40,838 bases of DNA from positions 1 through 40,838 of the forward strand of contig CANDCP010000027.1 in the NCBI GenBank assembly GCA_947383215.1, in the 5' to 3' direction. Below, one piece after another: positions 14,368 through 40,770 of the stretch. The notes under the pieces were generated by a model that was given only the letters and a program-made list of their open reading frames with translations, was not told the DNA's origin and searched no databases. The position numbers and the translations under genes were made by a program. Source of the DNA: an uncultured Roseburia sp. GTDB taxonomy: Bacteria > Bacillota > Clostridia > Lachnospirales > Lachnospiraceae. How positions within the stretch are numbered: position 1 is the stretch's first letter; each line of letters opens with the position of its first letter.

Positions 14368-17300
14368 CTATTTCACGGTAACCTTTATCTTCTTATACAG
14401 ACCGTTTTGCGCATAGACGTAAATCGTGGCGCTTCCTTTTGCCTGCGCTTTGATCACGCCTTTCTTTGTCGCGGCTGCAACCCCTGTGTTGCTCGACTCA
14501 TAACAGACGGCTCTGTGCTTGCCCAGCGGTTTATTTTTTCTGATCTCCTTCGCCTTTATCTTAAAGGTTTTTCCTTTTTTCAGGCTGACCTTCGTCTTGT
14601 TGACTTTAACCGCCTTTGAATTTCCCTTTTTGCCGCCCTCCGTATAAGAATGTACCGTCTTAGACGCCGCAATCGTAATTTTTTTGCCGTCAATTATCTT
14701 ATAGGCGCGCACAATAAACTTATAGGAAGTTCCCTTTTTTAATTTCTTGTGTACGTACTTTACCGTACTGTTTTTGGAAATTGTCTTTACCAGCTTGCAC
14801 TTTGTCTTCTTACCGCACTTACTTGCATAGATATCGTATCCGTCCGCCGCCTTCATCTTTTTCCACGTCAGAGTGATCTGCTTTGACGTGACCTTCTTAA
14901 TTCTCGCCTGAAGAAGCGAGAATACCGAACCTTCCACATCCTTCTCGGAGCTTAACCCCGTAATCGTATCGTCGCTGATTAAAAGCGTCGACGCCGGCAC
15001 GCCGAGCTGTTGCGCCATAATCCGTATCTTTCCGGCAACTGCCTCCGAAACGCCCAACTGCTTTGCGAGCGTTCTTATCTGCTCTCTCTCTTCGTCCGTC
15101 AATTGTCCGTCGCCCGGCTTTTCACCGCCGGCAGCCAGCTTGTCATACGCCGTCTTCGCATCGGCCAAAATCTTCTTTGCCTCAGCGGAAACCAGATTCT
15201 TCTGTTCGCTTGTCAGCTTTTCATAAGCTGCCGCCGCCGCGTCAATCTGATCCTTGCACTCTTTGGTATTTGTCACCGGAAGCTTAATCGCGCGAATCTT
15301 CTTTTCCACTTCCTCTGCCGCCGCCGTATCCGCCGCAAGCTTTGCAAAAACTGCCACCGCTTCCGTTAAACTTACGAGCTTCTCGGCGTCCACCATGTCT
15401 TTTTGCGTACCCGTCAGCTTTTCGTACGCTTCCCTGGCTTCCTCAATCTGCCTCTTACATCCGTCGGTATTGGTAATCGGAAATTTTATGGCGTCTATCT
15501 TGCTCTCAACCCCGGCTGCCGCGGTCTGGTTCTTCCCGTCATTGATTTCATCATCATACCGCTTTTCCGCCTCTGTGAGAATTTCCTTCGTCTCAGGTAA
15601 AACGAGATTTTTTTGTCCGTCGCTCAACTTATCATAAGCTTCCCTGGCTTCCGTAAGCTTTTCTTCCCAGGCGCCGCTTCCCGGCTCTTCCTCTAAAATC
15701 TCATTCACCTTTTCCGTCGCCTGCGCAACCGCAAACTTATCATATGTCCCCTGCGCCTCGGACAGCTTATTTCGCTTCTCCCCGTCTACCATATCCTTCT
15801 GCGCGCCCGTCAGCTTTTCATACGCTTCCCGCGCTTCCTCAATCTGCTGTCTGCACGCCTCTGTATAGGTTATCGGAAGCGCAATCGCGTCTATTTTTTT
15901 CTCGACCTCTTCGGCCGCCGCCTGGTTCCCTTTATTATTTTTCTCATCATCATAAAGCTTCTCGGCATCTGTCAGAATCTTCTTCACATCAGACGCAATC
16001 AGCTCTTTTTGTTCGTCGTTTAAGCCGTCATAAGCCTCTCTTGCATCCGCAAGCTTCTGTTCCCACTCCGGGCTTCCCGGCTTCTCGCCACAAACCGCCT
16101 GAATCTTCTCTGTCACAGAATCTGTCACGAGCTTATCGTAGGCGTCCTTTGCATCTTTCAGTTTTTCAAGCTTTTTTGCGTCCACCATCTCTTTCTGCGC
16201 TTCGGTCAGACTGTCGTACGCGTCTTTTGCATATGCAATCTGCCTTTTGCACTCATCGGCATCCGTTATCGGAAGCGAAATCGCATCGATTCTATATTCG
16301 GCTTTGTCGGCCGCATTTTTATTTTTCTTATAAATCTCCGCCTCCAAGAGCGTCTCCTTAAGCTCAGCCGGAACAAGCTCCTGCTGTTCCTTCGTCAGCT
16401 TATTTAACGCGTCTTTTGCATCCTCTACCAATTCCTGCCACGTAAGGCTTCCCTTCTCCTCGCCTGACAGCGCCTGAATCTTCTCAATCACAAGATCGGC
16501 CTTAAGCTTATGATAGTCCGCCTCGGCCTTAACCAGCTTGTCGCGCTTCGCCTCGTCTATCATATCCCTCTGCGCCCCGGTCAGCTCATTTACGGCGTCC
16601 TTTGCCTCGCATATCTTTTGCCAGCATGTATCCGTGGCCGTTACGGGCAATTCGATCGCATCGATCTTTGCCTCCGCCTCTGAGACCGTCTTTTGATTCT
16701 CTCCTCCATTGTAATTTTCGTCGTACTGTTTTTCCGCTTCGGTCAAAATCTTCTTTATCTCGGATGAAACCAGCTCCTTTTGACTGTCATTCAGATTGTC
16801 ATACGCTTCTCTGGCGTCTGTAAGCTTCTGTCTGCATTCGTCCGTATCCTCCACTTTGCCGATCGCGTTTATCTTTTTTATGACTTCAGAAACAGCGGCG
16901 CTCACCGCAACCGTCAATGTAACCGAATGCCCTTTCGCGTCCGTCGCCACAATCGTCTGCCACCCGTCGGCTTCCTCCAACGTAAACGCTCCGTCTGTCA
17001 GCGTTATCTCTTTTCCGTCCACCGTAACAGACGCGAGATTGCCGTCCGTCACCTTCACCTGCTTTGGCGCGTCATAAACCTGCCCGTCCGTCACGCCTGA
17101 AACAGACGGCGCCATATCGAACACCAGGCCGCCGGTAGAAAGATAGGATACATTTCCAAAAGCATCCTCTATTTTCACGTACACGACGCACTTCTTATCT
17201 CCGCTTATCGTAAACGTCGTCGTATCCGGATATCCCTCCGTCCACCTGTCGATCGTCTTCACCTCGTCTTGCGTAAGCGCCTTTCCGGACAGATAATAAG

Positions 17301-19110
17301 ATACGGACTCCACATAAGAATCGTCATCTGAGGCGGTAATCGTCACCTGCGTTTCCTCCTCAAAAGAGCTGTCAAAATGAATCTCATCGACGTCTCCAAG
17401 CTTATCCCATGTCTGTTCTCCGATCCGAATCGTTCCTACCGGCGCCTGCGTATCGGGTTCAGACGCCGTTGTTGGCGCAGACAGGTAAACGAGATTCGTC
17501 GTTACGCTGTTTCTGTTTTGATCCGTAATTTTACAGTAGTAAAACTGATCTCCCGATAAGCCCTTCGGAAGCGTATAGCCCGGGTCGCCTGACGGCCCCG
17601 TCACCGCGGTATACTGTTCCTTCCTCTCGTTATACCGATACCACTGATATGACAGCCCCGTGCCGGACGCCTTCAACTCCAACCGCCTGTCCTCCGGATA
17701 ATTATCCGGGGCCTTCGGCTGCGCCAAAATCTTAATCGCCCCCGGCTCCGTTCCCTTTTTCAGGCAAAGGCCTCTTGGATTCGTAGTAACATATTGATTA
17801 TAAAAATCACCGATATAATACTCCGGATCATCGCTGAAAAAGCAGCTTTTATATTCCTTTATTTTATCCCCTACGTAAATAACAAGTAAATCGGAATATA
17901 AAATGTTTTTGAATATACTTACGCCGATTTTTGCATCTTTCGACAAATCATACTGATATTCATCACTGTAAGACGGCTGGTATATATGTAAATTCGAATT
18001 GTTCAACTCACCGGTATCCGCATCAAGTCCTGTATTTCCCACAATCATAACAGAATCAGATATCTTCACATCACCGCTGCTGATGCCATCTGCCGCCACT
18101 CCGCCTGCATGAGACACATAATTGTATGTAATCCCCTCAACCCGGTTGCCCAATACTTTTGTTGTTCCTGACAGAAACAGCTTTCCGGTACCGACAGAGG
18201 TCTGCGCATAAATACCGCCGCCGTGAGAGCCGGCGCTGTTATTTTTGATCGTACCGCCTGATATACGAAACGTAATCGTCGTATCGCTGTAATCCTGACT
18301 TTGACACAATCCGCCGCCAGTTTTCGTCGCGTAATTTCCGCTGATCTCTCCGTCCGTCATCTCAACCTCACAGTCTCCCATTGCCGCAACCGCTCCCCCT
18401 TTATCCGCCTGATTATTGCGCAGCGTCGCGCCATGTATAAAAAGATTAGAAAACCAAAGAAAAACTGCTCCCCCCCTGGTGTCAAAGTCGCCAGCTTGTT
18501 CCTTCATCTCTTCCGAATACTCACTGCAATTATTCTGTAAAATAACGCCCCGGTACAGCGTAACCGTAGCGATATCTGCAGCAATTATCGGCGCAGGATG
18601 TGAGCCCCCGATTCCCTCATCCGCCGACGGCACGATAGAACGTCCCAGAACACTGTATGCCGATCCGTCGCTCCAGACCGTTCCGCCGTCTAAGGTCAAA
18701 GAATTCCCCTCCCCCATTCCCTCGGGAGCGCCTATCGTCAAACTTCCGCTCAGCTCCAAAGACGGCCCCCATTCCCCGACTTTAAACAAAGCGTTTTCTT
18801 CATTTTCTCTTGTCAGCGTACAATCTCCCTCTGCCAGAAGCGTAATGTCCTTTAATCCGATCTCTATCTCTTCTTCCATCCCAAACGATTCGGTAATTAT
18901 AATCACCGCGGACTGATCCGCCTGCTCTACTGCCGCCTTCAGCCCGGCAAAATCAGAGACTCTGACCGCATTCGCCGTCTCCGTCTCCTCGGCGGCCAAA
19001 ACATATGACGACAACGCGCCAAACGCCGGCTGGGACAACAACGCTACGCTAAGCGCTACTGAAACTCCTCTTCGAACCCAATTATTTATGTTTCTCACTT
19101 TTCTCCTCAT
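14368..19110 (-). CDS. Large secreted repeat protein (beta-helix, alternating helical repeats, FN3, Ig-like)
   Basis: A 1580-residue product with an N-terminal signal peptide (basic head, hydrophobic VSVALSVALLSQPAFGALSS, cleavage near residue 39). The start at 19110 is set by GGAGG 6 nt upstream. Domains in order: a right-handed beta-helix-like region (about 60-330; repeated G-G-A/G-I/V motifs such as DKGGAVAAMGDCEVEMTDGEISGN); Ig-like segments (about 440-735, with VSYYLSG and VTDGNLASVTVDGKEITL); nine tandem about-65-residue helical repeats (740-1327); a LTDEEREQIRTLAKQLGVSE segment; an FN3-like domain (about 1390-1480); and a C-terminal bacterial Ig-like domain ending YKKIKVTVK. No LPXTG motif or SLH domain is seen, so attachment is unclear. 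It sits 36 nt downstream of the histidine kinase and shares its terminator. Role: probably cell-surface adhesion or matrix; inferred. Confidence 0.85.
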   Translation of the reverse strand: MRRKVRNINNWVRRGVSVALSVALLSQPAFGALSSYVLAAEETETANAVRVSDFAGLKAAVEQADQSAVIIITESFGMEEEIEIGLKDITLLAEGDCTLTRENEENALFKVGEWGPSLELSGSLTIGAPEGMGEGNSLTLDGGTVWSDGSAYSVLGRSIVPSADEGIGGSHPAPIIAADIATVTLYRGVILQNNCSEYSEEMKEQAGDFDTRGGAVFLWFSNLFIHGATLRNNQADKGGAVAAMGDCEVEMTDGEISGNYATKTGGGLCQSQDYSDTTITFRISGGTIKNNSAGSHGGGIYAQTSVGTGKLFLSGTTKVLGNRVEGITYNYVSHAGGVAADGISSGDVKISDSVMIVGNTGLDADTGELNNSNLHIYQPSYSDEYQYDLSKDAKIGVSIFKNILYSDLLVIYVGDKIKEYKSCFFSDDPEYYIGDFYNQYVTTNPRGLCLKKGTEPGAIKILAQPKAPDNYPEDRRLELKASGTGLSYQWYRYNERKEQYTAVTGPSGDPGYTLPKGLSGDQFYYCKITDQNRNSVTTNLVYLSAPTTASEPDTQAPVGTIRIGEQTWDKLGDVDEIHFDSSFEEETQVTITASDDDSYVESVSYYLSGKALTQDEVKTIDRWTEGYPDTTTFTISGDKKCVVYVKIEDAFGNVSYLSTGGLVFDMAPSVSGVTDGQVYDAPKQVKVTDGNLASVTVDGKEITLTDGAFTLEEADGWQTIVATDAKGHSVTLTVAVSAAVSEVIKKINAIGKVEDTDECRQKLTDAREAYDNLNDSQKELVSSEIKKILTEAEKQYDENYNGGENQKTVSEAEAKIDAIELPVTATDTCWQKICEAKDAVNELTGAQRDMIDEAKRDKLVKAEADYHKLKADLVIEKIQALSGEEKGSLTWQELVEDAKDALNKLTKEQQELVPAELKETLLEAEIYKKNKNAADKAEYRIDAISLPITDADECKRQIAYAKDAYDSLTEAQKEMVDAKKLEKLKDAKDAYDKLVTDSVTEKIQAVCGEKPGSPEWEQKLADAREAYDGLNDEQKELIASDVKKILTDAEKLYDDEKNNKGNQAAAEEVEKKIDAIALPITYTEACRQQIEEAREAYEKLTGAQKDMVDGEKRNKLSEAQGTYDKFAVAQATEKVNEILEEEPGSGAWEEKLTEAREAYDKLSDGQKNLVLPETKEILTEAEKRYDDEINDGKNQTAAAGVESKIDAIKFPITNTDGCKRQIEEAREAYEKLTGTQKDMVDAEKLVSLTEAVAVFAKLAADTAAAEEVEKKIRAIKLPVTNTKECKDQIDAAAAAYEKLTSEQKNLVSAEAKKILADAKTAYDKLAAGGEKPGDGQLTDEEREQIRTLAKQLGVSEAVAGKIRIMAQQLGVPASTLLISDDTITGLSSEKDVEGSVFSLLQARIKKVTSKQITLTWKKMKAADGYDIYASKCGKKTKCKLVKTISKNSTVKYVHKKLKKGTSYKFIVRAYKIIDGKKITIAASKTVHSYTEGGKKGNSKAVKVNKTKVSLKKGKTFKIKAKEIRKNKPLGKHRAVCYESSNTGVAAATKKGVIKAQAKGSATIYVYAQNGLYKKIKVTVK
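15130..16890 (-). repeat. Nine tandem helical repeats of two alternating types
   Basis: Type A units read like EKIQAVCGEKPGSPEWEQKL then ADAREAYDGLNDEQKELI. Type B units read like KKIDAIALPITYTEACRQQI then EEAREAYEKLTGAQKDMV. They alternate A-B four times, with a ninth unit at the end that is type-B-like with an A-like second half. Each unit is about 65 residues and has the three-helix pattern of FIVAR/albumin-binding-like modules. Confidence 0.85.
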
Positions 19111-19145
19111 ATTTTTCCTCCATCTACAAAATGCGCCAAAATCCT

Positions 19146-20423
19146 CTATCCCCTGAGCCGAATCATGGCGTCCAATATAAAGTTTCCGTCCTCCGTATAA
19201 CAAACCATATCACCCCCCAATCTTTCCGACGCTTCCTTCACCGTAAGCAGGCCAAACCCGTGCCCCGCTTTCCCCTTGCTGCTGTCCGGAAGCGTTCCCC
19301 TGTCCACCTGAAGCTCCTTTTGACAGCGATTCTTCATTCTGATAATCAGATAGTCCTTATTATACTTCATGCGCACAGACGCCTCCCGCATTTCCTGCGG
19401 AAGCTTAACCAACGCGTCGCAGATATTCTCCAGTCCGTTGGAAAGAATCTGGCACAATTCCATATAGGGCAGCTCCTCGTCTCCGATCTGGATATCCGCC
19501 TGAAATTCGGCGCCCAGCCCCCGAAGCCTCTGAACATACTGTCCGACCACTGCGTTTATGTACGGGTTCGCACAAAACTGCCCGACGGCATCTTCCAAAT
19601 CTGATTCCATATTCTTCAAATACTTTGACGCCTCCGCCATCTTCCCCGCCGAAAGCAGTCCCGACAACGTGACGGCGTGCCCCTTCATGTCATGTTTCAT
19701 TTTTCGAATGTACTGCTGATTCTCCAGCTGTATCTTAAGAGAATACGTCTGTTCCTGTAACAAACGTTCGCTCTGCTGCCTCTGATAAAGCAGGAGCTGT
19801 CTGTACAGCGCGGAAAAAACCGTGGCATAGTTAAAAAACATCAAAATCAGGACTAAAACACAGACAAAAACGTCTTCCGGCCGGTTCGTAATATTCGTAG
19901 GATAATTTACAATCACAACTAAAAGCACATAGTACAAAACCGTCATGCCCGCAAAAACTCCCCAGCCTTTTTTGACCGCATCCTGCAGCATAAGGTAGGG
20001 CTTCCTTAAAAAGCGGTATGCGCAGTACTCTAACAGCGGAAACGCAGCCAGGCGGCTGATAAACATCAATATATACTTTCCTCCCCCCAGATAATAATCC
20101 AGAAGGTTTGTAGCCGCCATAATCCAAATACACGTCGTATCCGCCAGACAAAACGTAAAGAGGAACCGAAACCGTTTGTCCGCCGAGAGCACATAAAATA
20201 ACAGGAAGCTGGGCACGGAACACGTAAAGAGAAACGCCTTTCCAAGCGCTTCAAGCCCAAATATCACCAGTCCCGCTCCGTTTATAACCATCAACAGCCC
20301 CATACCGATACATCCGATCAGCATTGTCTTTTTCTTTGTATAACGCGACCGAAACAACATTAAAAAGAGAAAAATGACATGAATCATCCCCCAAAAAACA
20401 GATAACTCCATAAGCAATGTCAT
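19146..20423 (-). CDS. GHKL-family sensor histidine kinase (AgrC-like)
   Basis: A 425-residue membrane kinase. About six hydrophobic segments fill residues 1-205, followed by a coiled coil (205-240) and a GHKL kinase core. The phospho-acceptor is likely H244 in KMKHDMKGH. The N-box is NGLENICDAL (329-338) and the G-box GHGFGL (388-393). This is the class that senses cyclic peptides or other ligands through the membrane domain and partners with LytTR regulators. Its ATG is 5 nt past the response-regulator stop. No agrD-like peptide or agrB-like processing gene is adjacent, so the signal is unknown. Confidence 0.92.
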   Translation of the reverse strand: MTLLMELSVFWGMIHVIFLFLMLFRSRYTKKKTMLIGCIGMGLLMVINGAGLVIFGLEALGKAFLFTCSVPSFLLFYVLSADKRFRFLFTFCLADTTCIWIMAATNLLDYYLGGGKYILMFISRLAAFPLLEYCAYRFLRKPYLMLQDAVKKGWGVFAGMTVLYYVLLVVIVNYPTNITNRPEDVFVCVLVLILMFFNYATVFSALYRQLLLYQRQQSERLLQEQTYSLKIQLENQQYIRKMKHDMKGHAVTLSGLLSAGKMAEASKYLKNMESDLEDAVGQFCANPYINAVVGQYVQRLRGLGAEFQADIQIGDEELPYMELCQILSNGLENICDALVKLPQEMREASVRMKYNKDYLIIRMKNRCQKELQVDRGTLPDSSKGKAGHGFGLLTVKEASERLGGDMVCYTEDGNFILDAMIRLRG

Positions 20424-35691: not shown

Positions 35692-36579
35692 ATGAAATTG
35701 GAATTATGGATAATCATCGGTATTCTTGGCATCACGGTTCTCATCCTTTCGCTCAAGCTATTTCTTATGCGCAAATCCGCAAGAGAAATCGAATCCACGC
35801 TTGTCGACTGGCTTGCGGCCGAGACAAATACGCTGATTCACATTTCAAGCCGCGACGGCTGTATGCGCAAGCTTGCGGCAGGGCTTAACATACATTTGCG
35901 TATGCTCCGCCGTGAGCGCCGCCGTTTCCTGCACGGCGATCTGGAGCTTAAAGAGGCAATCACTAACATCTCGCACGACCTTCGCACCCCTTTAACTGCA
36001 ATCTGCGGATATCTCGATCTGCTGGAGCGCGAAGAAAAAACTGCGACCGTAAAACGCTATCTTTCTATGATCCAAAACCGCACAGAGGTCTTAAAACAAC
36101 TGACCGAGGAGCTTTTTGTCTATTCTATGGCCTCATCCGTACCGGAATCGAAACCGGAAACCGTGAATCTCTCGAGAATTTTAGAAGAAAGCCTGCTTTC
36201 CTTTTACGGCGCGATGAAACAGCGATCCATTATACCCGATATCTCCATTCCCCAGGCAAAAATAGAGCGCACTCTGGATCCAAACGCCGCAAACCGCATT
36301 TTCAGTAATATTATCGGCAACGCTTTAAAATACAGCGACGGCGACTTTTCGGTGCAAATGTACGAAAACGGAACCATTATTTTTTCCAACAGCGCCGAAA
36401 CCTTAAACGCGGTAACCGCCGGAAGACTTTTTGACCGCTTCTATACCGTGGATTCCGCTCAAAACGGTACCGGCCTTGGCCTCTCTATCGCCAGACTGTT
36501 AACGCAGCGGATGGGCGGAACCATCACGGCGGATTACAGCGAGGGAAGGCTTTATATTACGGTGCGCTTTCCGGCATAG
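35692..36579 (+). CDS. Sensor histidine kinase (HisKA/HATPase)
   Basis: A 295-residue kinase. One N-terminal membrane helix (about 6-26) is followed by a short linker, then the H-box with H95 (NISHDLRTPLTAICGYLDL), the N-box SNIIGNALKYSDGD and the G-box NGTGLGLSIARLLTQRMGG. There is almost no extracellular domain, so it probably senses through the adjacent transporter or within the membrane, as known for bacitracin-type intramembrane kinases. AAGGAGG precedes the ATG. It is the last gene of the RR-ABC-ABC-HK module. No clear terminator is seen before the convergent operon. Confidence 0.93.
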   Translation: MKLELWIIIGILGITVLILSLKLFLMRKSAREIESTLVDWLAAETNTLIHISSRDGCMRKLAAGLNIHLRMLRRERRRFLHGDLELKEAITNISHDLRTPLTAICGYLDLLEREEKTATVKRYLSMIQNRTEVLKQLTEELFVYSMASSVPESKPETVNLSRILEESLLSFYGAMKQRSIIPDISIPQAKIERTLDPNAANRIFSNIIGNALKYSDGDFSVQMYENGTIIFSNSAETLNAVTAGRLFDRFYTVDSAQNGTGLGLSIARLLTQRMGGTITADYSEGRLYITVRFPA

Positions 36580-36650
36580 GGGAAACGCCGCCCTTTTAAC
36601 TCTCTAACTCAGCAAAACAGGATACGAAAAAACACGATATCCCGCCAAAA

Positions 36651-38219
36651 TCAGACGACGGCTTCTATAATCGTCTTGCTGCCCACCAAAATCTGCTTTA
36701 CGCCGCGCTCTTTATTTTTATTAAAATTAAAGCTCAACATATACCCTTTTTGCTTATGATAAAAATCCAGATAATCTACAAGCTGTCTCTCTCCTCTTTC
36801 GTTATATTCCTTTCCGTGCCATATCTTCAATTCCACAATAAACTGCTCTCCGAAATAATCGATTATCACGTCTGTCCGTCTTGCATCTCTTGTCTGCGCC
36901 TCAATATAATAATTCCCCGCACCATTGATAATTGGTTTTAAATATAACAAAAAAAACTTTCTTCCATTGCGTTCAACATATTTCTCATCATTTCCATCAT
37001 AAATATCCGAAAAATATTCAACAAATTTTTCTAACACCAAATCCATATCAAGCCTTCCATCTTTAAGGAACTGATTCTTATCACGCTGCCCATATTGAAA
37101 CGCTTTACTTTCAACGGCCTCTTCCGTAATAAACATATTCAGCAAGCCCATTTCAAATACACGATTTGCAACTGCGACATGTCCGTTTTCTTCCTTTAAA
37201 AAACCAAACATTACACCTAAATTAACCGACTTTACAAGCGGGCTGAACGGAATTTGTTTTCCTTGATATAAAATCTCCTCTATCATACTGCGCAAGTCCT
37301 TATAGGTATCCAGCTGCTTTACCATACTGTCAAACAATGAAGTATTTTCTTTCAGAATATACTTTACCGCCTCTGCAATTCCTTCGCTGCTCCATACGGC
37401 AATCTCTTCGTCAAGTAATTTACAAATTGCAGACACCAAATATGGATACCCGCACGTATATTCATAAATACATTTTGAAACAATATATATGTCCATTCCC
37501 GTATGATGATCTTCCTCATATTCGCTGAGCATACCTGCAATCTGATCTGCGGAAAAACTCATCTCCAGACTAAATTTCGCCGCTATATTCCACGGACTGT
37601 TATACTTTCGTTCTTCATTAGGGCGTAGCTTTAACTTTAGATTTTTAATGTCGTAAACGCCGGCTAGAATTACCGACCAAAAAGTCGGCTTATTTTTCCG
37701 TTCAAGATAATACCCCCGCAATAATGCAAGAAAGTCAACAAACACCTGATAATTGGAAGCGCTGTCTACTTCATCGATCATAAGTACAAGCGGACGACCC
37801 TGCCTTAAACATTCCCCACATAACTTGCAAAACAATACAAACATTTCATTCAAATCAAATTTTTCATTTTCTACGCAACGCATCAGGTCCTGTAACGGAA
37901 TCGCCTCTGTTTTACCGTAACTTTCCCGCAATTCGCGCACAAAATAGTTTGTAAACGAAACTGCAAATTTGTGCTCATTTTCAAAAACAGATGTACTCAT
38001 TTTCTGAAAATCCATGAACAAAACGAAATAATCTTTTTTTAAATATTCTGCCAATGCCAGAAGTGTCGTCGTTTTTCCATACTGCCTGCCGCGGTTTATA
38101 ACAAAATACTTTCCTCGGTCTACATAGCGCTGCCGCATTTCTCTTAATCTCTCATCAAGCCTTACCATGTAATGTTCGTCCGGCTCACATTGACCTTCCG
38201 TGTTGAAATACCGCCGCAT
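36651..38219 (-). CDS. AAA-like ATPase with C-terminal PD-(D/E)XK nuclease-like domain
   Basis: A 522-residue protein from the ATG at 38219 (GGAGGG 7 nt upstream). The N-terminal P-loop ATPase has Walker A GRQYGKTT (44-51) and Walker B LVLMIDEVD (144-152). A helical middle contains a winged-helix-like stretch (about 300-360). The C-terminal part has the PD-(D/E)XK pattern: D450 in RTDVIIDYFG, then E463-L-K465 in FIVELKIW, followed by QLVDYLDF. The family (AAA-ATPase-like plus nuclease-like domain) is widespread, often multicopy, in gut anaerobes, and its role is not established. It starts 20 nt after the preceding gene on the same strand and is likely in the same operon. Codon use is AT-rich relative to neighbours to the left. 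Confidence 0.82.
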   Translation of the reverse strand: MRRYFNTEGQCEPDEHYMVRLDERLREMRQRYVDRGKYFVINRGRQYGKTTTLLALAEYLKKDYFVLFMDFQKMSTSVFENEHKFAVSFTNYFVRELRESYGKTEAIPLQDLMRCVENEKFDLNEMFVLFCKLCGECLRQGRPLVLMIDEVDSASNYQVFVDFLALLRGYYLERKNKPTFWSVILAGVYDIKNLKLKLRPNEERKYNSPWNIAAKFSLEMSFSADQIAGMLSEYEEDHHTGMDIYIVSKCIYEYTCGYPYLVSAICKLLDEEIAVWSSEGIAEAVKYILKENTSLFDSMVKQLDTYKDLRSMIEEILYQGKQIPFSPLVKSVNLGVMFGFLKEENGHVAVANRVFEMGLLNMFITEEAVESKAFQYGQRDKNQFLKDGRLDMDLVLEKFVEYFSDIYDGNDEKYVERNGRKFFLLYLKPIINGAGNYYIEAQTRDARRTDVIIDYFGEQFIVELKIWHGKEYNERGERQLVDYLDFYHKQKGYMLSFNFNKNKERGVKQILVGSKTIIEAVV

Positions 38220-38239
38220 TTTTCTACCCTCCATATATA

Positions 38240-39553
38240 TTATCCCTGAATCTGGTCATAACGCTCCCTGGCAAGCCTTCTAACTGCTCTATAATTAGAA
38301 TCAGATGACTGCAATAAAAACTGATTTATCCAGGTTTCGTTAAATCTCAATTTATGCAAACCTCTTTTTTCTATCTCATCGCACCATCTCTTGACATTCC
38401 TCCCCTCCGTGCCTACATAAGCGATCTGAAACAATAATTCCGAATTTCTTGATAAATCACGCAGATACAGCTCCCACTTCACAGTGGTTACTCCATCTAA
38501 AATCTGTTGTAAATATTCCTGCGCATCCCATGAATGTTCGTATTCATTTCCCATGACACAGATTAACGTGGCATTCAGACATTCATACACGGCTGGATCC
38601 GGTATCATTGTCCCCATTGACGCTAACATTTTTGCCGCCAATGGTTCGTTATAAAAATTATTAATTCCATTATGTGTATTTAACAAATTTTTGGCAGAAC
38701 TTATAAATGAATTTGATTTCAAATTTTCCGGAACATAATCAAAGCCATGTACATTAAACAAAATTGTTTTCATCGCTTTAATATAATCCCTTTTATCGGA
38801 ACTAGAAATCTCTGCATAAACAGTTCCAAAATTGTATTTATCAACCTCGGCAAGCGAATCCCATATTACAGGAACGATGGTACTCATATTATGGAATACA
38901 ACATCTTTTTCTTCTTGCTTTTCAGTCCGTGCCATATTAAGTAATGAGCGCAAAATTGTCCTCTTTTGAAAATACTGCTCTTGCGAAAGCCTGACTATTT
39001 CCTCCGATGTAGGCGTTAACAATTTGCTTTTTAGCATTTCTCTTATATTCGTAAAGCTAAGTGTTTTGCATTCCGTCATATCTGAAAGAACATAACGAAT
39101 ACAATCATCAATAAGAGTTCGCGCCTGATTCTTATTTATGTTAATCTTTTCAATCATTTGATACTCTCTTGACGAATACATCTTTATCTGTTCCGCATGA
39201 TGAAGCAATTCCAGCTTTTCATTCTTTTTTAAAAATCCTATATCACAATTTAATTCAATAATCTCCTGTTCCGAAATTCTATCTATGGACACTTCTTTAT
39301 CGTATCCTAACATATCGGCTATAAATTCTTTCCCAAAAAATTCTAATCTATCCTTTAGTATAGATATTGTTCTGCGCCATACAAACTCTGCCGCCATATC
39401 AAACAGACCGCTCTCGAAATTCACAAGAACTGCCTTTTGTTCTCTTTCGTTCAGCTGAATATTTGACACGGAACAATCAAAACAAGTATTGATCTCGGGA
39501 ACCACTTCGCAAGAAACCACTTGCGTATTATTAATCGTCATCAATTCATTCAT
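38240..39553 (-). CDS. Unrecognised 437-residue protein in the DAC-like operon
   Basis: I do not recognise this family. The sequence looks soluble and mostly helical, without signal peptide or membrane helices. Short Cys-containing segments lie near the N-terminus (VSCEVVPEINTCFDCSVSN), and the C-terminal third is Trp/Arg-rich (WCDEIEKRGLHKLRF, WINQFLL, YRAVRRLARERYDQ). It starts in a TAATG overlap with the stop of the DAC-like gene, so production is tightly coupled to that protein and physical partnership is plausible. Composition is AT-rich like its two neighbours. It could be an effector, adaptor or regulator of the system; nothing in the sequence decides. Confidence 0.8.
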   Translation of the reverse strand: MNELMTINNTQVVSCEVVPEINTCFDCSVSNIQLNEREQKAVLVNFESGLFDMAAEFVWRRTISILKDRLEFFGKEFIADMLGYDKEVSIDRISEQEIIELNCDIGFLKKNEKLELLHHAEQIKMYSSREYQMIEKININKNQARTLIDDCIRYVLSDMTECKTLSFTNIREMLKSKLLTPTSEEIVRLSQEQYFQKRTILRSLLNMARTEKQEEKDVVFHNMSTIVPVIWDSLAEVDKYNFGTVYAEISSSDKRDYIKAMKTILFNVHGFDYVPENLKSNSFISSAKNLLNTHNGINNFYNEPLAAKMLASMGTMIPDPAVYECLNATLICVMGNEYEHSWDAQEYLQQILDGVTTVKWELYLRDLSRNSELLFQIAYVGTEGRNVKRWCDEIEKRGLHKLRFNETWINQFLLQSSDSNYRAVRRLARERYDQIQG

Positions 39554-40590
39554 TATATATCTTCCCTCCTTTTATAAAATATTTCACCGTCTTGTGACTG
39601 AAAATAAACAGCCGTCAATCTCTCCATTTCAATATTTTTATATATTCCTTCCGCTGTTCTTTTCCTAGCTCCACCTTTAATGTCTCTGGGAATATCCCCT
39701 TTATAAAACGCATTATACCCAATGATTCTCCCTTGATCCGTAATAACTGTAATTCCGTCCGTATTCAGCATTTCATAAAAAGCGCCGGTGATTGAATAAA
39801 ATTTTTCAGCTTCAGAATAGCTTTCAATCATTTCCTTATCTAAAAAAAGCTCATATAAATTTATATCCGGCGTTAATCTTATACCGTCTAAATATTTGTT
39901 TGGATAATCAAAAGAACTACTTACAACTATCATAATTGTTCCATGTACCTTTATTGGTAAATTTCTTAGTACCTTTAACATACAGCTCTGCGCGTAAATG
40001 GATTTATCCTTTCGAGGGTTAATCGAGATAATATCTTTACTCATCTGAGAAAAAATTTCGTTATTATCGTTCTTTTCGTCATAAAATTTTATACTTATAA
40101 TTTCTTTTTCTTTATTAGGTCTTGTTATACAAAGCTCAAAATTATTAACCGCTTTTATAACCATAACTTTACACTCGGGGTTCAAATCGAACAAATCTGT
40201 CTGTTCATGTAAATATTCTTCAAAATTGTTTCCATTAATTTCTGTATATCGCCTAAAAATACCATATTCCATCCCGTCTTCTTTAACATTTACATAAATA
40301 AACCATCCGTTTTTGCAAAACGGAGCCAGTGCCTTATAATATCTCAAAAATTTACTCCCCTCAAATTTATCTTTAAACATACAAAATGAACTCTTTGACG
40401 GTATTGCTTCAAAAAAAGATTCTATCTTAGTTCCTATAATTATTTGAGAGAATATTTTACAGTCCTCCTCACTATAATTATACATTTCTGACATTACAAC
40501 CAACAGTGTATGATAAAAGTCATCCGTCAACCTTATCTTCTCTTCCTCAAATATTCTTTTGATTTTATCTTCAGCTAAACTATAATACAT
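39553..40590 (-). CDS. Divergent DisA_N (diadenylate cyclase-like) domain protein with N-terminal sensor-like region
   Basis: A 345-residue soluble protein. Residues about 200-340 follow the order of DisA_N/DAC motifs: a hydrophobic strand VHGTIMIVVSS (compare GALIVV), DGIRLTPDINLYEL, then TDGITVITDQGRIIGYNAF (277-295; compare DGAIVI...G.I), GGARKRTAE (306-314; compare GTRHRAA) and FQSQDGEIFY (330-339). The catalytic-type DGA is DGI here and RHR is RKR. About 25 extra residues split the domain. Residues 1-195 are of unknown fold and sit where DACN-type sensor domains occur in related conflict-system proteins. Activity may be altered or lost. It heads the three-gene operon; GAGGAG lies 8 nt before the ATG. 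The assignment is by motif order only. Confidence 0.65.
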   Translation of the reverse strand: MYYSLAEDKIKRIFEEEKIRLTDDFYHTLLVVMSEMYNYSEEDCKIFSQIIIGTKIESFFEAIPSKSSFCMFKDKFEGSKFLRYYKALAPFCKNGWFIYVNVKEDGMEYGIFRRYTEINGNNFEEYLHEQTDLFDLNPECKVMVIKAVNNFELCITRPNKEKEIISIKFYDEKNDNNEIFSQMSKDIISINPRKDKSIYAQSCMLKVLRNLPIKVHGTIMIVVSSSFDYPNKYLDGIRLTPDINLYELFLDKEMIESYSEAEKFYSITGAFYEMLNTDGITVITDQGRIIGYNAFYKGDIPRDIKGGARKRTAEGIYKNIEMERLTAVYFQSQDGEIFYKRREDI

Positions 40591-40675
40591 CTTTCATACT
40601 CCTCTGTCGTCTATTCTTAACTTATTTTCTATATATGTCTTTTTTATTCTCATCGAAAATATTTTCTATCTGTAA

Positions 40676-40704
40676 ATTGTACAGCATCCTTTTCGTATTG
40701 TAAA
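40676..40704 (-). promoter_or_regulatory. Sigma-A promoter of the DAC-like operon
   Basis: Minus strand TTTACA (40699-40704), 17-bp spacer, TACAAT (40676-40681). Each hexamer is one base from consensus. No operator-like repeat overlaps it. Confidence 0.85.
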
Positions 40705-40711
40705 CAAATTA

Positions 40712-40739
40712 GAAAAAAAGGAACCTATCTCAAGGTTCC
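40712..40739 (-). terminator. Terminator of the gene entering from the right edge
   Basis: GGAACC (40720-40725) pairs with GGTTCC (40734-40739). Minus-strand reading is followed by seven T residues. It isolates the DAC operon from upstream transcription. Confidence 0.82.
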
Positions 40740-40770
40740 GCTTATTATTGACTATTTACATATAAAATAA

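What the first reader, a model, noticed from the sequence alone, without database searches (positions are those of the whole stretch)
36651..40590. Three-gene operon: DAC-like protein, unknown protein and AAA/PD-(D/E)XK protein
The sequence shows three minus-strand genes with a one-base TAATG overlap and a 20-nt gap, a near-consensus promoter directly after a foreign terminator, and AT-rich composition unlike the rest of the window. From family knowledge, DisA_N-like proteins fused to DACN-type sensors occur in predicted nucleotide-based conflict systems, and ATPase plus nuclease-like proteins are common effectors. I infer a signal-plus-effector immunity or stress system: the first gene would make or sense a nucleotide, the third would act on nucleic acid, and the 437-residue protein would link them. 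The nuclease gene may be an independent passenger.
Basis: partly seen in the sequence, partly recalled or inferred. Interest (0 to 1): 0.8.

Follow-up and report, generated by a model that had tools for sequence, protein, structure and literature searches.

The report
Diverged cyclase plus pseudo-HEPN partner cassette
A mobile two-gene cassette, found in bacteria of several phyla, pairs a very diverged relative of cyclic-di-AMP synthases with a helical protein whose relatives carry a ribonuclease-like motif that this branch lacks; it is probably an undescribed anti-phage or stress switch.

Summary
The three genes are real and intact, in a 4,187-base insertion missing from a same-genus genome. 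The conserved system is genes 1 and 2 only.

P2 (38240-39553) directly follows P1 in 45 of 45 loci found with P1 (eight phyla). In seven relatives without P1, the P2 domain is fused to a caspase (4) or a Ser/Thr kinase (3). Relatives with none of these partners keep a HEPN-like RN-x5-H motif (44 of 45); partner-linked ones do not (0 of 53, one locus counted twice).

P3 (AAA_35 plus PD-(D/E)XK) looks like an independent passenger: absent from 101 related loci, standing alone in four inspected genomes.

Best reading: P2 is a sensor/regulator that lost its nuclease and drives exchangeable enzymes, here a diverged DAC. SIR2-pAgo, CBASS and restriction neighbours in some loci suggest phage defence. 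No function was tested; P1's activity is unknown. I found no description in the papers and family libraries searched.

The parts
39553..40590 (-). P1, 345 aa: conserved N-terminal domain plus C-terminal diverged DAC domain
39556..40062 (-). DAC-fold domain of P1 (residues 177-345); motifs D278-G279-I280 (39759-39751), G306-G307-A308-R309-K310-R311 (39675-39658), S332-Q333-D334-G335 (39597-39586)
38240..39553 (-). P2, 437 aa, all-helical partner; matches PHROG 27609 (unknown function)
39140..39205 (-). Stretch of P2 (approximate) aligned with the HEPN-like RN-x5-H motif of partnerless relatives; motif absent here
38645..38662 (-). NNFYNE motif of P2; N299, F300 and E303 invariant in alignments A5, A7 and A12
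40676..40704 (-). Promoter-like TTTACA-17-TACAAT upstream of P1
   Evidence: 10 of 12; such sites not enriched over shuffles
40720..40739 (-). Terminator-like hairpin followed by a T run, behind the end of the upstream gene
36651..38234 (-). P3, AAA_35 ATPase plus PD-(D/E)XK; judged an independent passenger
   Evidence: AAA_35 55.1 bits against cut-off 27, PDDEXK_3 22.3 against 22; independent occurrence
36578..40764 (.). Insertion between a histidine-kinase gene and the end of a TIM-barrel-like sugar isomerase/epimerase gene (the latter named by eye)
   Evidence: blastn of the window against same-genus L129

Best explanation
P1-P2 is a mobile two-gene immunity or stress module. Shown here by computation: P1 ends in a diverged diadenylate-cyclase fold; P2 is homologous to proteins that carry a HEPN-like RN-x5-H motif; P2's branch lacks that motif; in part of that branch there is no P1 and P2 is fused to a caspase or a protein kinase. 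Inferred: P2 is the sensor and regulator (a dead HEPN-like region plus a helical solenoid); on sensing phage or stress it activates its enzyme partner. Here that partner is P1, which uses ATP or another nucleotide to make a cyclic or linear dinucleotide; the product halts growth or acts on other host proteins. P3 is not part of it.
For: P1 directly precedes P2 in 45 of 45 distinct loci with a P1 ORF, the window included. Of 49 close-clade loci from the genome scan (L024-L072), 41 have P1, 4 a caspase (3 fused, 1 adjacent), 3 a fused kinase, and 1 is a P2 fragment without a partner. P1-first searches gave two plasmids and one new viral contig (L113), all with P2 directly behind. The nearest relative is similar over P1+P2 only (77.6% over 2,385 bases, window 38230-40590). 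DAC fold. RN-x5-H: 0 of 53 partner-linked against 44 of 45 partnerless, on homologous proteins (hhalign E 5e-45). Caspase and kinase forms make one clade (SH-aLRT 99), and the P1 profile found no P1 in those loci, so P2 can work without P1. SIR2-pAgo genes lie 28-49 bases from P1-P2 in three loci and 38 bases from caspase-P2 in one. CBASS genes are adjacent in L007.
Confidence: 0.5

Rival explanations
1. CBASS-like order: P1 senses infection through its N-terminal domain and makes a nucleotide; P2 is the nucleotide receptor and effector.
For: Two-gene synthase-plus-partner layout; conserved P1 N-terminal domain with E41, E42 (39 of 40, one gap), K86 and G110 (40 of 40); P2's relatives carry a ribonuclease-like motif; P1 and P2 distances correlate (r 0.91, 32 pairs), which linkage alone also gives.
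Against: RN-x5-H is missing in 45 of 45 P1-linked P2; caspase- and kinase-fused P2 occur without P1 in the loci held.
Confidence: 0.28
2. P1 is a nucleotide-binding pseudo-enzyme: the DAC fold reads a host or phage nucleotide and gates P2.
For: Changes of the Thr and His of the GTRHR motif.
Against: D278, G279, R309, S332, D334 and G335 are invariant in 40 of 40 sequences, more than I would expect for binding alone; P1 takes the place that caspases and kinases hold in relatives.
Confidence: 0.15
3. A toxin-antitoxin or element-maintenance pair without a phage trigger.
For: Two overlapping genes on plasmids and in phage-like contigs.
Against: Large, enzyme-like first gene; partner swap with caspase and kinase; no small antitoxin.
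Confidence: 0.1
4. A three-gene operon as first proposed, with P3 as nuclease effector.
For: P3 follows P2 by 5-20 bases and lies in the same insertion; it may well be co-transcribed.
Against: 0 of 101 related loci carry P3 in the DNA held; P3 relatives in 6 other genomes without a P1 match, four of them inspected.
Confidence: 0.05

Closest known systems
Diadenylate cyclases DisA / CdaA (Pfam DAC, PF02457)
   Same: Fold of P1 residues 177-345; DG motif, the first Arg of the RHR motif, and a Ser..Gly at the last motif
   Different: Below Pfam's cut-off (12.8 against 27 bits); GGAR-x-R in place of GTRHR; SQDG in place of a SEETG-type motif (the latter recalled); own N-terminal domain; P2 partner. 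The host has one canonical DAC elsewhere
DS-2 of DefensePredictor (phospholipase, cGAS, DAC), PMC13092281
   Same: A DAC needed for phage defence; its homologues sit beside CBASS (15 of 30 in the paper). One locus here (L007) has CBASS genes beside P1-P2
   Different: No P2-type partner is mentioned in the passages read; a relative of the L007 cyclase was found in no other locus held (one blastp query). Whether the DS-2 DAC is a relative of P1 could not be tested: no sequence or accession was found in the main text
PHROG 27609 (unknown function), partnerless P2 relatives
   Same: Homologous to P2 over 377 columns; P2 matches the PHROG at E 3.9e-15
   Different: 44 of 45 keep RN-x5-H and none has P1 in the loci held
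PD-T4-6 kinases and caspase effectors of PADLOC
   Same: The enzyme halves of two P2 fusions match these models: L003 kinase, L013 caspase
   Different: P1, a separate gene, takes the place of that enzyme half in the window
CBASS and Panoptes (nucleotide-based immunity)
   Same: Small operons built round a nucleotide-making enzyme and a partner (recalled; Panoptes papers seen only in a search listing)
   Different: P1 is a DAC fold; no PADLOC cyclase model matches P1-P3

Membership tests
Diadenylate cyclase (DAC) fold | DAC three-dimensional fold | tested here: met
Pfam DAC (PF02457) | Score over the curated cut-off | tested here: not met
   12.8 bits against 27, E 0.09
Canonical diadenylate cyclase | DGA and GTRHR motifs (canonical form seen; catalytic role recalled) | tested here: not met
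   DGI 39, DGM 1 of 40; Ala for Thr in 37 of 40; His 0 of 40; first Arg 40 of 40, second 34 of 40
Canonical diadenylate cyclase | Makes c-di-AMP from ATP | not testable with these tools
   Needs purified protein
HEPN ribonuclease | R-x4-6-H motif (definition recalled) | tested here: not met
   At the aligned place P2 and the other 44 P1-linked relatives lack RN-x4/5-H; 1 of the 45 has a looser R-x4-6-H (L048). 44 of 45 partnerless relatives have RN-x5-H
HEPN ribonuclease | HEPN fold or profile match | tested here: inconclusive
   Sub-threshold Pfam hits only; no row named HEPN among those shown for P2
CBASS | CD-NTase | tested here: not met
   No cyclase model matches P1-P3. The rest of the window was not scanned with PADLOC
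Any system in PADLOC-DB 2.0.0 | A model match for P1 or P2 | tested here: not met
   0 families at E<=1 for both
DS-2 | DAC homologous to the DS-2 DAC, with phospholipase and cGAS | not testable with these tools
   No sequence or accession in the main text; none of P1-P3 matches a cyclase model
AAA_35 plus PD-(D/E)XK ATPases (P3) | Pfam cut-offs | tested here: met
   55.1 against 27 and 22.3 against 22 bits

The most novel reading that the evidence does not exclude
P2 is a sensor built on a dead HEPN-like nuclease that handed its killing function to exchangeable enzymes (DAC, caspase, kinase). In the P1 branch the output is a nucleotide made by an altered DAC active site, so probably not ordinary c-di-AMP, and it acts without a dedicated receptor gene.
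Probability: 0.33. Interest if true: 0.86.

Novelty: new variant of a known kind. Interest (0 to 1): 0.7.

Why it matters
According to PMC13092281 (2026), DACs had not been validated in phage defence before its DS-2 system, which pairs one with CBASS. If P1-P2 works as proposed, it is a separate DAC-based system in at least eight phyla, with a changed active site that may make a new nucleotide. It would also show one regulator used with three kinds of enzyme output, a direct way to ask which part of an immune protein senses and which part acts.

Tried and rejected
The N-terminal domain of P1 as a second, degenerate DAC copy: hhalign of the two halves gave probability 0.4%, and of the N-terminal half against canonical DACs 0.3%; dropped. 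P1, P2 and P3 by sequence in the PDB: no significant match. P1 in phages, P2 in phages and one Vibrio P1-P2 DNA query in E. coli genomes: none. P1 in a phylum sample: 1 of 398, the window itself; family sample 1 of 397, the window itself (single-protein query). P2 in the family sample: 4 of 397 with the window, one of them a cut-off copy (L004). P1-first viral scans with P0001, A2, A10 and A11 found nothing; A9 found L113 and L114, but L114 is the contig of L012, which was in the query, so only L113 counts as new. The genome scan kept the best 80 of 172 relatives, so all locus counts are of that capped list plus the other fetched loci.

PADLOC scan of 137 of 144 near neighbours (seven of 936-1335 aa left out to fit the size limit; ORFs of 150-1400 aa within 2.5 kb of 41 P1-P2 loci) gave 321 matched models but not the number of proteins hit, so I quote only named hits. 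In some searches I scanned 20 neighbours chosen by hand; 10 had at least one hit at E<=1e-5, two of them weak (L041, L048). Several hits are to helicases, which match many models.

Rows dropped: from the P1 alignment three short P1 rows (L031, L044, L063) and the plasmid rows L006 and L007 (and L035 from the P2 alignment among others); from the motif count L001 (duplicate of the window), L004 and P2 matches under 330 residues (so L020, L027, L070). The tree used 67 of 98 rows (every third partnerless row). 'Partnerless' means no P1 in the locus and no fused kinase or caspase known to me; 34 of the 45 were scanned with Pfam and showed neither. Separate kinase or caspase genes beside them were not looked for.

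Literature: searches (spoiled, as the underscore is passed over) listed no paper on this pair. PMC13092281 was seen as section 7 plus found passages; the other papers only as listings. Galperin 2023 is not held. A 2015 comparative-genomics paper on nucleotide-based conflict systems, which I recall, was not looked up.
Full report
Observation. The window's last 4.2 kb hold three intact minus-strand ORFs as described. P1 and P2 overlap by one base. The stretch is AT-rich. Compared with a same-genus genome (L129), window 32989-36577 matches up to the end of the histidine-kinase gene, and 40765-40838 matches the end of the next gene, while 36578-40764 is missing there (77 bases instead). So all three genes lie in one insertion. 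I saw no integrase among its ORFs. The right flank rests on 74 bases, because the contig ends at 40838.

P1 and P2 form a unit. The genome-contig scan with the P2 alignment found 172 relatives, of which the best 80 were kept. A P1 profile then found 46 P1 ORFs in the 103 loci held at that point; two of these are the window itself, held twice, so there are 45 distinct loci. In all 45 a P2 ORF follows directly; in 35 of the 45 the two overlap by 4-38 bases when the first possible start is used. In 41 of the 49 close-clade loci of the scan (L024-L072) P1 is present. Because that scan started from P2, I also searched from P1: four P1 queries hit the same two plasmids, both with P2, and one of five viral scans found one new contig, again with P2. 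That is three P1 records found without P2, a small number. The tree labels give eight phyla for P1-P2: Bacillota, Bacteroidota, Pseudomonadota, Thermodesulfobacteriota, Campylobacterota, Nitrospirota, Planctomycetota and Gemmatimonadota. The nearest relative, a Lachnospiraceae MAG (L024), aligns with the window from the P1 start codon to 10 bases past the P2 stop and, by blastn, nowhere else. P1-P2 is nevertheless rare: 1 of 397 genomes of the family sample and 1 of 398 of the phylum sample have P1, each the window's own.

P2. Its model is all-helical (pLDDT 85.8); residues about 161-422 resemble HEAT/ARM solenoids, but at a Z (9) that is not safe for helical proteins. It matches PHROG 27609, of unknown function. 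Relatives without P1 or a fused enzyme carry RN-x5-H (mostly RNWASAAHP or alike), a HEPN-like pattern: 44 of 45, L101 being the exception. P1-linked, kinase-fused and caspase-fused P2 do not: 0 of 45, 0 of 4, 0 of 4. L003 and L068 are the same locus, so there are three distinct kinase forms and 52 distinct partner-linked rows. The two groups are clear homologues and fall on two sides of one branch, so the loss may be a single event. Caspase and kinase forms make up one clade (SH-aLRT 99) that lies among P1-linked ones if the tree is rooted with the partnerless group, at forks with support 83 and 90. The tree is a quick one, warns of long branches meeting at the split of the two groups, and flags odd letter make-up in four rows. 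The P1 profile found no P1 in the caspase and kinase loci. In L027 the caspase is a separate adjacent gene and P2 is split; it was left out of the count.

P3 is separate. It matches AAA_35 and, just over cut-off, PDDEXK_3. tblastn at E<=1 found it in 0 of 101 related loci, 44 of them P1-P2 loci. It occurs in 7 of 61 sampled genomes including this one; none of the other six has a P1 match, though some are incomplete. In the four with near-full copies, no P1 or P2 lay in the loci searched, and ORFs that look like housekeeping genes, read by eye from their first residues, flank it.

Surroundings. Named defence neighbours: a CBASS cyclase and patatin (L007); a BsuBI/PstI restriction system (L006); SIR2-pAgo at L043 and L051 (downstream, 49 and 28 bases; for L043, for L051, whose protein is 77% identical, so perhaps one event), at L055 (upstream, 31 bases) and at L013 (beside caspase-P2); HmaB (L049) and a type IIG enzyme (L057); DrmD-like, DpdJ/SngC-like helicases and an IetS-like gene (L046, L053, L032). 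There is no background control, and 10 of the 20 neighbours scanned one by one had no hit.

Mechanism. Because P2 pairs with three unrelated enzymes and lacks the motif its partnerless relatives keep, I read P2 as sensor/regulator and the partner enzyme as output. The exchange of partners and the missing motif are shown; the roles are inferred. The main rival, P2 as receptor of P1's product, is not excluded. Phage-like and plasmid locations and defence neighbours make phage defence the most likely use.

Known or new. Neither P1 nor P2 matches PADLOC, Pfam or NCBIfam above threshold. DACs in defence are known from DS-2 (PMC13092281, section 7 read), there with CBASS and without mention of a P2-like partner in that section. 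Searches listed no paper on the pair; most subscription journals and bioRxiv are outside that library. I rate it a new variant of nucleotide-based immunity rather than a new category, since function is untested.

Noticed in passing
L043:2865-6023, L051:9364-12522, L055:3703-6834, L013:3949-7086: SIR2-pAgo genes stand within 28-49 bases of P1-P2 (three loci, on either side) or of caspase-P2 (one locus), a recurrent association that might be functional.
   Followed up: partly
L013, L028, L029, L030 (caspase); L003/L068, L056, L064 (kinase): P2-like domains fused behind caspase or protein-kinase domains, without P1.
   Followed up: partly
L005, L008-L011, L014-L023, L073-L103: A broad family (PHROG 27609 where tested) of proteins of about 430-530 aa, mostly with RN-x5-H and an NNFYNE-like motif, in phage-like contigs, plasmids and chromosomes, of unknown function; one (L008) sits behind a DUF4297-HerA pair.
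   Followed up: partly
L012, L113 (IMG/VR contigs): P1-P2 carried in phage-like contigs, between an HTH/ImmA-like gene and regulator- and integrase-like genes (read by eye).
   Followed up: no
L006:3225-3839, L032:9299-9913, L035:9299-9913: A 204-aa ORF follows P2 in three Vibrio loci; in L006 it looks like a membrane protein by eye. A possible lineage-specific third gene; the three were not compared.
   Followed up: no
window 14368-19203: ORF of 1611 aa on the minus strand, not examined.
   Followed up: no
L004: A P2 fragment appears to be cut off and to run into transposase-like sequence near a contig end (read by eye).
   Followed up: no
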